Below, one piece after another: positions 20,605 through 31,874 of a DNA stretch of 32,806 bases (the stretch's first letter is position 1; each line of letters begins with the position of its first letter). The DNA is from an uncultured Prochlorococcus sp. (GTDB taxonomy: Bacteria; Cyanobacteriota; Cyanobacteriia; PCC-6307; Cyanobiaceae), in the NCBI GenBank assembly GCA_913048245.1, contig CAJWWR010000010.1:1-32806 (forward strand). The letters run 5' to 3'. A program made the position numbers and the translations under genes. Below the pieces are notes generated by a model that was not told the DNA's origin, searched no databases, and saw only the letters and a program-made list of their open reading frames with translations.

Positions 20605-20675
20605 GCGGGCGTGGTTTAGTGGTAAAACCTCAGCCTTCCAAGCTGAAGATGCGGGTTCGATTCCCGCCGCCCGCT
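20605..20675 (+). tRNA. trnG: tRNA-Gly (anticodon TCC)
   Basis: A full 71-base cloverleaf. Acceptor GCGGGCG (20605-20611) pairs with CGCCCGC (20668-20674), with T20675 as discriminator. The anticodon arm is TCAGC, loop CTTCCAA (20635-20641), GCTGA, so the anticodon is TCC (20637-20639), reading GGA and GGG. The T arm is GCGGG, TTCGATT, CCCGC. CCA is not encoded. The discriminator base is also the first base of the glgX stop codon on the other strand. Confidence 0.97.
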
Positions 20676-22759
20676 TAATCATTTTTAATACTTGTCTCAT
20701 ATATTTTTTTAGAGATAAGCAGAATGGCGCTTCTGCTTTCTAGATCAACTGAATTCCCTGATATTTGTTTAGGTTCAGTGATATTAGAATCTGCTGTGTC
20801 TATGATCTTTAGCCATTTGCTTGTACTTTTTGGTAAACAAAAATTAATATTTTTTTTATATGCATTTAAACCACACCAAAGAATAGGACTACTCTTATTT
20901 ATGCTAAAAGCTAATGTATGAGACCAACTACTCCAATCAGGATTGTTGATAGTTGTTCCATGCCAATATATTTCTGGGAGATTCTCCCTGCTTGATTTGT
21001 TCATTGGATTTATGAACTTAGATAATTTTTTTCTTATACGTATGAGTTTCTTTACAAAAGCTAATAATTCAAGGTCTTGGTCTTTTTCATTCCAATTCAT
21101 CCATGCTAAAGAATTATCTTGACACCAAGTGTTATTATTCCCTCCTTGAGATCTCCCAACTTCGTCTCCCATAAGTAACATTGGAACACCTCTTGATATT
21201 AATAATGTAAAGAGAAGATTTCTTTGCTGTTTTTTTCTTAAGGAATTGACTCCTAAATCATTAGAGGGTCCCTCTACTCCATGATTCCAAGAGTTGTTAT
21301 GATTTTCTCCATCTTTGTTTTGTTCCCTATTAGAAAAATTATATTTGTTATTAAAACTTACTAAATCTTTTAATGTAAATCCATCATGGGCAGTAATGAA
21401 ATTAATTGATTTGGGGTATGTATTCTTACCTTCATAAGTATTAGGACTTATCTGCAATTTGCTAGATAAATTCCATGCAGTATCGTCTTCACCTTTCCAG
21501 AATTTTCTCGAATCATCTCTAAAATATCCATTCCAAGTGAAAACATTTTTTGCTGGAAAATCTTTTGATTTATATAAACCTCCGCAATCCCATGGTTCAC
21601 TTATAAATTTTACTTCAGTTAATTCCGGATCTGATTCTAGGTCTTCAAAAAAAGGAGGATTTAAAAGGGGAATTAAATTTTCTCCTCGCGATAATGCTAT
21701 TCCAAGATCAAATCTAAATCCATCTACACCTAATTCGTTAGCCCAACACTTTAATGATTCTATAATAAGTCTTCTTACTAATCCTCTATTAGCGGCAATT
21801 GTATTTCCGCATCCAGTGACATCCTGGAAGTTTTTCTTTTTATCTATGAAGTAAAAGAGACTTTCATCAAAGCCTTTCCAAGACAAAATCGGACCATCTT
21901 TGTTCCCTTCAGATGTGTGATTGTAGACAACATCCAGAATTACTTCAATATTATGATAATGACATGCTTCTACAAATTTCCTAAACTCCTTCCTACTACC
22001 CTCTGAAGATGAATTTGTAAAATATTGAAAATGAGGTGCAAACCAATTAATTGGACTATACCCCCAATAATTTTGTAATCCATTTGGTGCATCATTTGGA
22101 TCAAAACAAAAAATAGGTAATAGTTCAATTGTTGTAACTCCAAGATCTTTAAGGTAGGGAATTTTTCTTATCAATTTCTCAAAACTGCTTTCCTGAGACT
22201 CCGTTTCGACATTCTTTAAATTCTTGGTAAAAGCATTGATATGTAATTCATAAATAATAGTTTTTTCCCATGAATGTTTTGGCCTTGGGAAATTGTCAAA
22301 GTCAAATTTATCTCTTTCGCAGACAATACTTTTAAGGCAAGTATTCAGATTGCTTTCTTGATGGCATGCATTTTCTCTATTGTATATATCCCACCCAGTT
22401 ATTTCACGACTGCAAGGATCTAGAAGTATTTTTTTAGAATAATTAGAATCGCAATTGTACTTTTGGTGAACTCTGAATCCATAAAGAGCTCCTTTTTTTA
22501 GACCTTTTATCTCTGCATGCCAGTATGGCCCTGAACAATGTGAGCTATCTAATTTGAATATAATGTAGGGATTAACTGCATTTTTACTATCAAAAATTAA
22601 GAGTTCAATAAACTCTGCATTAGAAGCTATAACTGAAAAATTTACTCCATTATCAGTTATTGAACTTCCCAAAGGAGAGGGATTCCCTATGTTAATTTCT
22701 AGGACTTCTTTAACTTCTGATTTGAGCAGATTAGTTTTATTAATATTTCTTTCTTTCAT
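20675..22759 (-). CDS. glgX: Glycogen debranching enzyme (isoamylase-type, GH13)
   Basis: This enzyme cuts alpha-1,6 branches during glycogen breakdown. The 694-residue protein has an N-terminal CBM48-like domain (about 25-125) and the GH13 barrel. The catalytic residues are the nucleophile Asp351 in DGFRFDLG, the acid/base Glu388 in SEPWDCGG, and Asp459 in TAHDG. DVVYNHTSEG (276-285) is the first conserved GH13 region, and NNTWCQDN fits the GlgX/TreX subfamily. The start is ATG at 22759, preceded by the 522-bp gap. The stop overlaps the tRNA-Gly end by one base. Being near the sugar transporter fits use of glucose and glycogen. Confidence 0.94.
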   Translation of the reverse strand: MKERNINKTNLLKSEVKEVLEINIGNPSPLGSSITDNGVNFSVIASNAEFIELLIFDSKNAVNPYIIFKLDSSHCSGPYWHAEIKGLKKGALYGFRVHQKYNCDSNYSKKILLDPCSREITGWDIYNRENACHQESNLNTCLKSIVCERDKFDFDNFPRPKHSWEKTIIYELHINAFTKNLKNVETESQESSFEKLIRKIPYLKDLGVTTIELLPIFCFDPNDAPNGLQNYWGYSPINWFAPHFQYFTNSSSEGSRKEFRKFVEACHYHNIEVILDVVYNHTSEGNKDGPILSWKGFDESLFYFIDKKKNFQDVTGCGNTIAANRGLVRRLIIESLKCWANELGVDGFRFDLGIALSRGENLIPLLNPPFFEDLESDPELTEVKFISEPWDCGGLYKSKDFPAKNVFTWNGYFRDDSRKFWKGEDDTAWNLSSKLQISPNTYEGKNTYPKSINFITAHDGFTLKDLVSFNNKYNFSNREQNKDGENHNNSWNHGVEGPSNDLGVNSLRKKQQRNLLFTLLISRGVPMLLMGDEVGRSQGGNNNTWCQDNSLAWMNWNEKDQDLELLAFVKKLIRIRKKLSKFINPMNKSSRENLPEIYWHGTTINNPDWSSWSHTLAFSINKSSPILWCGLNAYKKNINFCLPKSTSKWLKIIDTADSNITEPKQISGNSVDLESRSAILLISKKIYETSIKND

Positions 22760-23281
22760 GATAATTCTATAAATAACAAATAAATCAACTCTTGTATTTC
22801 AAAAATTGAATAGATTTGAGTTTGTTTTTAAGACATATATATAAATCTATATATAGTTTTTCAGTCTTTAGAACTTTATTAAGGAATACTGATATTTATT
22901 AAAAACGCTTACTGACATGTGATGAGAAGAAAATATATTAGAAAGTTAATAAAAAATAATATAAATTTTGATTTTTTATTATTTCCCAATAAATCTTATT
23001 TTTATGTATGGATACTCTTTATATAAATTTCTTTAAAAATCTAGTGATATCAATAAGTTTCTAGTATATCCATGGCGCTTGATCGAGTATGGTTTTTGTG
23101 TGATTACTGATTCAAAGAATCAATCTTTTAGAAATAATTGTCAACAAACTTTGTATAAAGCTTTGCGCCAACGGGATTTTCGGTTGCCGTATTTGGATTT
23201 GCTCCATATGATATGCAAGTTCGGGATATTTAGACTTATTCAAAACAAGTCTTTAAAATCTCTGCTTTAAAAAACAATTCA
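22760..23281. other. 522-bp gene-free stretch between glgX and the HU gene
   Basis: The only gap over 300 bases. Its left part, to about 23060, is extremely A+T-rich and holds a perfect 10-base palindrome CTATATATAG (22847-22856); the glgX promoter must lie here. The right part is different: about half of the bases in 23160-23226 are G or C, against roughly a third around it. Two small hairpins are visible: TGATTC-AAA-GAATCA (about 23107-23121) and AGACTT/AAGTCT (23232-23237 with 23247-23252), the second about 30 bases before the HU start. I see no tRNA, no Yfr1-like ACTCCTCACAC motif, and no convincing coding frame. A structured leader or small RNA for HU is possible. Confidence 0.45.
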
Positions 23282-23557
23282 ATGAACAAAGCTGACTTAG
23301 TAAATCTTGTTGCTGCTCGTACCGAGCTCACAAAAACAGATGTTTCTTTAGTTGTTGATGCAGCTATTGAAACTATCGTAGATTCAGTAGTGGAAGGCAA
23401 AAAAGTCTCCATACTTGGATTCGGTTCATTTGAACCAAGAGATCGTTCTGCAAGACAGGGATTAAACCCTAAAACAGGCGAAAAAATTGCAATCCCTGCT
23501 AAAAGAGTACCTACATTTTCAGCAGGAAAATTGTTTAAGGATAGGGTGCAGGGCTAA
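23282..23557 (+). CDS. hup: HU family DNA-binding protein
   Basis: HU is a small nucleoid protein that bends and compacts DNA without strict sequence preference. The 91-residue protein begins MNKADLVNLVAARTELTK, carries the hinge and arm motif GFGSFEPRDRSARQGLNPKTG, and ends at the normal family length. It starts with ATG and has no Shine-Dalgarno sequence in the preceding A-rich stretch. A clear hairpin terminator follows 28 bases after the stop, so it is probably transcribed alone with the leader described upstream. Confidence 0.97.
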   Translation: MNKADLVNLVAARTELTKTDVSLVVDAAIETIVDSVVEGKKVSILGFGSFEPRDRSARQGLNPKTGEKIAIPAKRVPTFSAGKLFKDRVQG

Positions 23558-23580
23558 TATAGCTAACCTCCATATTCTTA

Positions 23581-23610
23581 CAAAGGGCTCTTATAATGAG
23601 CCCCTTTTTT
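23581..23610 (+). terminator. Rho-independent terminator of the HU gene
   Basis: Stem GGGCTC (23585-23590) pairs with GAGCCC (23598-23603) around the loop TTATAAT, followed by C and a run of six T. The AAA before the stem can extend it by pairing with the first T's past one bulged C. It is the clearest terminator in the window. Confidence 0.9.
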
Positions 23611-23670
23611 ATTTTTCAATCCAATCAATTTGAAATACTAGAATCAATTTAAGATTGTAAGTTCTAAGCA

Positions 23671-23982
23671 ATGTTTTTTTTTAAAGCATTTTTTTATTTG
23701 TTAATCTCACTTTATTTTGTTTCTCCAAGAGTTACAAGATCGATGGATTTATTTTTCTTAAATGAGATAAAATATTGTCTGGATAATCAATTAAAAGACA
23801 AATGTAAAGAAATAATTTTAGAATTAGAAGCTCTTCAGACTATTGAAGAGGAAAAAGGCAATTTTAGATGTCAAACAAGTATCCTGGGTCTTCAATCTGA
23901 ACTAATTAAGGCTATTAATTCCAATCATAGAAATTTCGATTTTGAAGGAGTTTCGATTACATTCGTAATTAAAAATTGTTAA
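23671..23982 (+). CDS. Small exported protein with four cysteines, function unknown
   Basis: A 103-residue protein with an N-terminal hydrophobic stretch (3-20) that looks like a signal peptide or anchor. The remaining part has four Cys (in EIKYCLDN, DKCKE, NFRCQTS and the C-terminal KNC) spread over predicted helices. The Cys count is compatible with disulfides outside the cytoplasm. I do not recognise a family. ATG start, no Shine-Dalgarno sequence; it lies 60 bases after the HU terminator with its own transcription likely. Confidence 0.65.
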   Translation: MFFFKAFFYLLISLYFVSPRVTRSMDLFFLNEIKYCLDNQLKDKCKEIILELEALQTIEEEKGNFRCQTSILGLQSELIKAINSNHRNFDFEGVSITFVIKNC

Positions 23983-31763: not shown

Positions 31764-31857
31764 GACTCGGCCTTTCGCGGTTTTAACGCCTAAATCTGGT
31801 CAGGACTGGAAAGTAGCAGCCACACGGGATGCTTGAGGCAGGCGAGATAACCGGGTC
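31764..31857 (+). ncRNA. ffs: Signal recognition particle RNA, small bacterial (4.5S) type
   Basis: SRP RNA binds Ffh and targets membrane proteins during translation. The ends GACTCGG (31764-31770) and CCGGGTC (31851-31857) pair. The Ffh-binding tip is plain: GGTCAGGACTGGAAAGTAGCAGCC around the GGAA tetraloop (31808-31811), with the conserved asymmetric loop AGCAGCC. Length is about 94 bases, a single-hairpin form without the Alu domain. It lies between panB, from which it diverges, and the convergent ftsZ. Confidence 0.95.
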
Positions 31858-31874
31858 ACAATAATAAAGAACTT

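What the first reader, a model, noticed from the sequence alone, without database searches (positions are those of the whole stretch)
23094..23281. GC-richer leader before the HU gene, possible regulatory RNA
In a 522-bp gap that is otherwise extremely A+T-rich, 23160-23226 is about 48% G+C by my hand count, and two hairpins flank it. The frame that runs through it uses CGC and CGG codons that are rare in the neighbouring genes, so coding is unlikely. A structured 5' leader or small RNA controlling HU is the best reading.
Basis: partly seen in the sequence, partly recalled or inferred. Interest (0 to 1): 0.55.

Follow-up and report, generated by a model that had tools for sequence, protein, structure and literature searches.

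The report
Conserved promoter of the HU gene
The GC-richer patch in front of the gene for the DNA-packaging protein HU looks like a deeply conserved promoter (the switch where transcription starts) rather than a structured RNA, although a small conserved RNA stem-loop does lie just behind it at the start of the message.

Summary
23160-23226 is 47.8% G+C in a 522-bp gap whose remainder is 21.3%, and it is strongly conserved. The best reading is a promoter, not a structured leader. In 165 distinct HU upstream regions, every one has TTGNNN (23184-23189), a 17-bp spacer of variable sequence, and TANNNT (23207-23212); 0 of 20,000 column permutations match that score. An invariant G at 23219 sits where +1 is expected. 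In 20 divergent family genomes with no or weak model hits, 19 keep TTGC-spacer-TANNNT near HU, against 0.15% of shuffles and 0 of 6 copies in other families. The GC-rich block is not folded (mean z +0.16 over 67 sequences); the predicted 63-nt 5'UTR behind it is (mean z -2.18), with a covarying stem-loop. An upstream block (23157-23171) may be an operator; its factor is unknown. No transcript 5'-end data were available. Ordinary in kind, unusually conserved.

The parts
23184..23189 (+). predicted -35 element, TTGCCG (-35 to -30 relative to predicted +1)
   Evidence: TTGC in 165 of 165 sequences; 23184-23187 each 67 of 67 in the thinned set; one of 7 sites flagged by the simple promoter scan
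23190..23206 (+). 17-bp promoter spacer; 23190-23201 variable in sequence, 23203-23206 (TCCA) conserved
   Evidence: length 17 in 165 of 165; 0.02-0.77 bits at 23190-23201 without gaps
23207..23212 (+). predicted -10 element, TATGAT (TACGAT/TACCAT in most sequences of other genera)
   Evidence: TANNNT in 165 of 165; T23207, A23208, T23212 each 67 of 67
23213..23218 (+). discriminator between -10 and +1; commonest bases TAGCGC in the thinned set, ATGCAA here
   Evidence: column counts, alignment
23219..23219 (+). predicted transcription start (+1), G
   Evidence: G in 67 of 67, 7 nt after the -10 hexamer; start itself inferred, not mapped
23157..23171 (+). conserved upstream block AAAGCnTTGCGCCAC (-62 to -48), possible operator
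   Evidence: information content; one exact AAAGCNTTGCGSCA site in the own genome
23178..23183 (+). conserved TTTCGG abutting the -35
23154..23159 (+). TATAAA, possible second upstream -10 (weaker case)
   Evidence: 88 of 88 sequences with the Prochlorococcus-type CATATGAT marker, 46 of 67 thinned
23219..23265 (+). 5'UTR stem-loop; inner stem 23232-23237 with 23247-23252
   Evidence: fold of L001 5'UTR; mean z -2.18 over 67 sequences; covariation in 22 relatives
23266..23281 (+). unpaired tail before the start codon, no Shine-Dalgarno-like core in most relatives
   Evidence: fold; SD-like core in 2 of 67 thinned
23282..23557 (+). HU coding sequence, 91 aa plus stop
23585..23603 (+). intrinsic-terminator-like stem after HU, followed by T run

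Best explanation
The GC-richer block is the HU promoter: -35 TTGCCG (23184-23189), a 17-bp spacer, -10 TATGAT (23207-23212) and +1 at G23219, read by the main (sigma-70-type) RNA polymerase. A conserved block at -62 to -48 (23157-23171) probably binds a factor that sets promoter strength. The transcript then has a 63-nt 5'UTR that folds, starting at its first bases, into a stem-loop (23219-23265), leaving about 16 nt of unpaired sequence before an AUG that lacks a Shine-Dalgarno sequence. The stem-loop most likely protects the 5' end and keeps the start region open. Shown by computation: conservation, fixed spacing, lack of excess folding in the block, folding with covariation in the 5'UTR. 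Inferred: the exact start site, sigma factor, operator role and the stem-loop's stabilising role.
For: Conserved in the genus: 160 of 200 genomes match strongly (E below 1e-27). Of the other 40, I checked 8: 7 have no HU hit in the assembly and 1 has HU cut off at a contig end. A sequence model finds the region in 206 of 300 family genomes and 47 of 59 genera, own genus included. Information content is maximal (67 of 67) at T23184, T23185, G23186, C23187, T23207, A23208, T23212 and G23219 (also at A23158, T23178, A23206), low at 23190-23201. -35, -10 and the 17-bp spacing hold in 165 of 165; the promoter score is 12 of 12, reached by 0 of 20,000 column permutations. In 20 divergent family genomes with no (13) or weak (7) model hits, 19 have TTGCNN-17-TANNNT 30-150 nt before HU, against 0.15% of shuffles and 0 of 6 copies in other families. 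G208 was already in the alignment, so 18 of 19 were unseen. Distance from -10 to ATG varies there from 39 to 144 nt. The block does not fold (z +0.16), the 5'UTR does (z -2.18); controls -0.03 (upstream), -0.99 (HU CDS), -1.05 (5'UTR reverse strand). Stem-loop: covariation score 0.330 against 0.226 +/- 0.021 shuffled, 0 of 500. Main fold begins within 7 nt of +1 in 62 of 67.
Against: No transcript 5' ends were available; the start-site paper I tried is not held. The promoter score was devised after I had seen the alignment. The simple promoter scan found 7 sites in 22700-23700 against 5.0 +/- 1.9 in shuffles, so its flag alone means little. The -35 is TTGC rather than TTGA. TCCA before the -10 and the block at -62 to -48 are about as conserved as the hexamers, which a plain promoter does not need. 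An upstream TATAAA is present in 46 of 67 thinned and 88 of 88 CATATGAT-type sequences. One of 20 divergent genomes (G247, L279) lacks the pattern; L268, L283 and L284 have altered hexamers. RNAalifold on 13 Prochlorococcus sequences alone gives a consensus fold (-9.48 kcal/mol) that involves the block, though these are near-identical there; on 22 relatives it gave no fold, but it missed the 5'UTR stem too, so it is not decisive. The same caution holds for the covariation scan, which was not structure-aware. HU coding sequence also folds somewhat better than shuffles (z -0.99). The stem-loop register slides between genera; 76.6% of cells pair, the count of pairs with two-sided changes (10 of 14) was reached by 17 of 500 shuffles, and I chose the 22 sequences for similar layout and drew the structure from their folds.
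Confidence: 0.86

Rival explanations
1. The block is transcribed from an upstream promoter (TATAAA, 23154-23159, start near 23166) and acts in the RNA as a leader or small RNA.
For: TATAAA is kept in 88 of 88 CATATGAT-type sequences. Block 23157-23221 is highly conserved. The window sequence alone, and 13 Prochlorococcus sequences together, give folds that pair parts of the block.
Against: No excess folding over 67 sequences (z +0.16; reverse strand of the core -0.42). No helix seen among the best covarying pairs listed. TATAAA is lost in 21 of 67 while the inner hexamers are invariant. Fixed 17-bp spacing with a variable spacer is not expected of an RNA motif.
Confidence: 0.07
2. Two promoters: the invariant inner one plus an upstream TATAAA start in some genera, so that part of HU mRNA carries the block as extra leader.
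For: TATAAA in 46 of 67; many Prochlorococcus sequences also share GCTAAAAATGTC-like sequence further upstream.
Against: Upstream element absent from several clades; a -35 partner for it was not tested.
Confidence: 0.15
3. The block is a short protein-coding gene on either strand.
For: Minus-strand frame 0 is open across the core in 141 of 165 sequences, and an ATG-led minus-strand reading can be made from the window sequence.
Against: Stops interrupt every frame in some relatives (5 to 141 of 165 open; 4 to 48 of 67 thinned). Conservation follows promoter positions with a variable spacer, not codon positions.
Confidence: 0.02
4. The block is an autoregulatory HU-binding site in DNA or RNA.
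For: It is a single strong site in the own genome, in front of HU; HU proteins are known to bind structured nucleic acids (recalled).
Against: HU binds dsDNA without sequence specificity (start of abstract of PMC5683647 seen in the listing), which does not call for a near-invariant sequence. Binding was not tested here.
Confidence: 0.08

Closest known systems
Bacterial sigma-70-type promoter (-35 TTGACA, 17 bp, -10 TATAAT; consensus recalled)
   Same: TTG / TANNNT at 17-bp spacing in 165 of 165 sequences; a purine 7 nt after the -10 in 67 of 67
   Different: -35 reads TTGC; conserved TCCA before the -10; a conserved block at -62 to -48; more conserved than a plain promoter needs
5'-terminal stabilising stem-loops of bacterial mRNAs (type case recalled: E. 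coli ompA)
   Same: stem-loop beginning within a few nt of the predicted 5' end, unpaired region before the AUG
   Different: stability effect not tested; no sequence relation tested
Cyanobacterial Yfr small RNAs (Yfr1, Yfr2-5, Yfr7 and others)
   Same: conserved intergenic elements in the same group of organisms
   Different: no Rfam match here; the word finds in PMC1242208, PMC2518516 and PMC7368042 gave no hit for hup or histone in their main texts; the core shows no excess folding
Riboswitch or ribosomal-protein-type autogenous leader
   Same: conserved sequence upstream of one gene
   Different: the core shows no excess folding and most likely lies upstream of +1

Membership tests
sigma-70-type promoter | -35 and -10 hexamers with 16-18 bp spacing | tested here: met
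   165 of 165 with 17 bp; 19 of 20 divergent genomes, 18 of 19 unseen
sigma-70-type promoter | spacer constrained in length but not in sequence | tested here: met
   23190-23201 0.02-0.77 bits, no gaps in 67; but 23203-23206 are conserved
sigma-70-type promoter | transcription starts about 7 nt after the -10 | not testable with these tools
   no 5'-end data; invariant G at the expected place
structured cis-regulatory RNA covering 23160-23226 | folds better than shuffled sequence across relatives | tested here: not met
   mean z +0.16 (23157-23219), +0.51 (23153-23226), n 67
structured cis-regulatory RNA covering 23160-23226 | covarying helices | tested here: inconclusive
   no nested run among the best pairs listed, but that scan also showed the 5'UTR stem only weakly; RNAalifold found no fold in 22 relatives and one fold in 13 near-identical Prochlorococcus sequences
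structured 5'UTR stem-loop at 23219-23265 | folds better than shuffles and covaries | tested here: met
   z -2.18, 55 of 67 below -1; covariation score reached by 0 of 500 shuffles, two-sided pair count by 17 of 500
known Rfam family | score above gathering cut-off | tested here: not met
small protein-coding gene | one frame open across relatives | tested here: not met
   best frame open in 141 of 165 and 48 of 67
multi-gene regulon operator | same site in front of other genes | tested here: inconclusive
   block 1 in own genome: 1 exact, 1 with one mismatch, 26 with two (control 6 in all), neighbours not examined. Promoter core: 64 of the 82 genomes with a hit have one site, and no genome has two exact listed hits.

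The most novel reading that the evidence does not exclude
HU in picocyanobacteria is controlled by a dedicated, unknown DNA-binding factor that reads the block at -62 to -48 together with the TTGC and TCCATA boxes (a TTGC pair two helical turns apart). It would serve essentially one promoter per genome and have been kept across the family, so that these regulator-poor cells reserve a private switch for their main nucleoid protein.
Probability: 0.2. Interest if true: 0.5.

Novelty: new member of a known kind. Interest (0 to 1): 0.3.

Why it matters
It turns a candidate structured RNA into a concrete, testable promoter map for HU, a nucleoid protein of very abundant marine phototrophs. The promoter is recognisable across a family in which the sequence just upstream of it is not conserved, so it could serve as a reference promoter for picocyanobacteria. 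The block at -62 to -48 gives a defined bait for finding a regulator. It is also a warning that GC-rich conserved patches in AT-rich genomes can be promoters rather than RNAs.

Tried and rejected
Structured leader over 23160-23226: rejected mainly by folding over relatives; the covariation scan and RNAalifold point the same way but are weak tests. An outer stem pairing AAGC/GCGC with GCGC/GCUU looked attractive by eye but breaks without compensation in several clades (my reading of the alignment, not counted). Coding on either strand: every frame is stopped in some relatives. Rfam: nothing relevant. Multi-gene regulon: the block-1 pattern with up to 2 mismatches gives 28 sites in the own genome against 6 for the reversed-pattern control, but only one exact and one 1-mismatch site; the neighbours of the others were not examined. 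Exact hits away from HU in 61 family genomes exist and were not followed up. A 'strict' pattern was off by one base and gave 0; corrected (with slightly wider -10 letters) it gives 17 of 20 family and 0 of 6 others. Presence outside the family: no clear match in 194 genomes of the class search (best E outside the family 2.8e-4, a locus without an HU hit). Papers: main-text word finds in five papers and six answered searches showed no description of this promoter or leader in what was displayed; supplements could not be read.

Rows dropped before counts: loci without an HU hit (L135, L171, L187); L120-L122, which repeat L117-L119; loci with under 165 nt upstream of HU; identical upstream sequences; then 165 distinct sequences thinned to 67 at under 85% identity.

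Full report
What was checked. Rfam has no match at its gathering scores there, and 23060-23300 folds like its shuffles.

Conservation. A DNA search with 23020-23300 in 200 genomes of the genus (own included) gives 160 strong matches (E below 1e-27); the other 40 have only chance-level E-values. I looked for HU in 8 of those 40, three of them at least 90% complete: 7 have no HU hit at all and 1 has HU cut off by a contig end, so none shows HU without the block. Aligning 90 loci on the HU start showed a near-invariant block that ends abruptly upstream of TTTGTATAAAG. Outside the genus the block lies in front of HU in 25 of 26 loci examined, or 22 of 23 once three repeated loci are set aside. A sequence-only model of 35 sequences finds it in 206 of 300 family genomes, 140 of 196 near-complete ones and 47 of 59 genera, own genus included. 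In the own genome it finds one strong site, next best E 0.115. Outside the family nothing convincing turned up in the class search.

What the conservation looks like. Of 165 distinct upstream regions I kept 67 less than 85% identical (8 with the CATATGAT marker of the genus, plus L002 of the genus without it) and measured each column. Three conserved boxes appear: AAAGCnTTGCGCCAC (23157-23171), TTTCGGTTGCCG (23178-23189) and TCCATACGAT (23203-23212), plus an invariant G at 23219. Between the second and third box lies a variable stretch without any gap. TTGC and TA...T are invariant, and the spacer is 17 bp in 165 of 165 sequences. A score for the key bases TTG and TA...T at 16-18 bp, devised after seeing the alignment, reaches its maximum of 12; no permutation of the columns, both strands, out of 20,000 does so, and 62 reach 10. 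The promoter scan had flagged the same site as one of 7, where shuffles give 5.0 +/- 1.9. The invariant G is 7 nt after the -10 hexamer, where +1 is expected. That makes block 1 lie at -62 to -48 and the 5'UTR 63 nt long.

Test on divergent relatives. I took 20 family genomes in which the sequence model had found nothing or only weak matches, plus 5 genomes of other families, and fetched their HU genes. TTGCNN-17-TANNNT lies 30-150 nt before HU in 19 of the 20 and in 0 of 6 HU copies of the other families; shuffled upstream regions give 0.15%. The fuller form TTGC-N17-CATAYVRT is in 17 of 20 and 0 of 6. One of the 20 (G208) was also in the alignment of 67, so 18 of 19 were truly unseen. The exception is G247 (L279). 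Distance to the start codon ranges from 39 to 144 nt, so the element behaves as a unit independent of the leader. In the 19, an upstream TTGC stands 21, 22 or 23 bp before the -35 TTGC in 2, 4 and 1 cases, with three further cases at 12, 13 and 16 bp, so block 1 persists only in part there. A pattern for the two inner boxes, one mismatch allowed, hits 82 of 101 family genomes, 64 of them once, against 4 control hits; no genome has two exact listed hits. I did not check every hit for an HU neighbour.

Structure. Over the 67 sequences the core 23157-23219 has mean z +0.16 and 23153-23226 +0.51, so no excess folding. The 5'UTR 23219-23281 has mean z -2.18, with 55 of 67 below -1. Second run with controls: 5'UTR -2.16, its reverse strand -1.05, 63 nt upstream of the core -0.03, an HU coding stretch -0.99. 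A covariation scan on the sequence alignment shows no helix in the core among the best pairs listed; it shows the 5'UTR stem only in scattered pairs, so it is a weak test. RNAalifold gave no fold for 22 relatives and a fold of -9.48 kcal/mol, with pairs in the block, for 13 Prochlorococcus sequences that hardly vary there. In 22 relatives chosen for a similar layout, a 14-pair stem-loop drawn from their own folds keeps 76.6% of cells paired. Its covariation score is 0.330 against 0.226 +/- 0.021 in shuffles (0 of 500); 10 pairs have two-sided changes (17 of 500 shuffles reach that); sliding the partner drops pairing to 41-47%. RNAalifold on the same alignment gives a weak 7-pair version, -2.46 kcal/mol. 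The main fold starts within 7 nt of the predicted +1 in 62 of 67, and 61 of 67 leave 14-26 unpaired nt before ATG. A Shine-Dalgarno-like core is present before HU in 2 of the 67, 7 of the 20 divergent genomes and 6 of 6 copies in other families.

How it most likely works. RNA polymerase with the main sigma factor binds TTGCCG/TATGAT and starts at G23219. A factor may bind the block at -62 to -48. The message opens with a stem-loop that probably slows 5'-end attack, followed by an unpaired stretch where ribosomes load without a Shine-Dalgarno sequence. Only conservation, spacing and folding are shown; the start site, sigma factor, operator and stability effects are inferred.

What remains open. 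An upstream TATAAA is present in 46 of 67 and in all 88 sequences with the CATATGAT marker, so a second start cannot be excluded. Why TCCA before the -10 and block 1 are so conserved is not explained by a plain promoter. The 26 two-mismatch sites of block 1 in the own genome were not examined. The papers seen (search answers, of which one search listed none; passages of PMC1242208, PMC2518516, PMC7368042, PMC5069720 and PMC3898218) do not describe an HU promoter or leader of this group in what was shown. PMC3898218 reports 745 5'UTRs in MED4 with a median near 29 nt and no Rfam elements (passages). The start-site paper I looked for is not held.

Noticed in passing
L037, L041, L043, L045, L047, L049, L050, L051, L052, L053, L058, L086, L090; HU coding sequence after codon 8: 13 of 90 loci of the genus carry an HU that differs soon after the start (e.g. 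MNKADLVNMVSAATGE instead of MNKADLVNLVAARTEL) behind the same promoter. In L041, the one printed in full, the C-terminal half is nearly identical to the window's, as if a segment had been exchanged.
   Followed up: partly
20-nt stretch before HU ATG, family versus other families: HU has a Shine-Dalgarno-like core (loosely defined) in 2 of 67 thinned family sequences and 7 of 20 divergent family genomes, but in 6 of 6 HU copies of other families.
   Followed up: partly
window 23585-23603: Intrinsic-terminator-like site after HU (6 pairs, then a T run), so HU is probably a single-gene transcript.
   Followed up: no
window 31764-31860 and 20605-20675: Bacterial small SRP RNA and tRNA-Gly (TCC) genes on the plus strand.
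   Followed up: no
window 20675-22759, minus strand: The divergent neighbour (glycogen-debranching-like by recall, no family search run) is divergent to HU in 30 of 67 thinned loci, 225-835 bp away; in the other 37 no match was found in the stretch held, which is often short.
   Followed up: partly
G001, G010, G027, G106, G165, G181, G195: Seven genomes of the genus, among them three at 92, 94 and 100% completeness, show no HU hit at E up to 1e-10; missing assembly, masked stretch or true absence was not distinguished.
   Followed up: no
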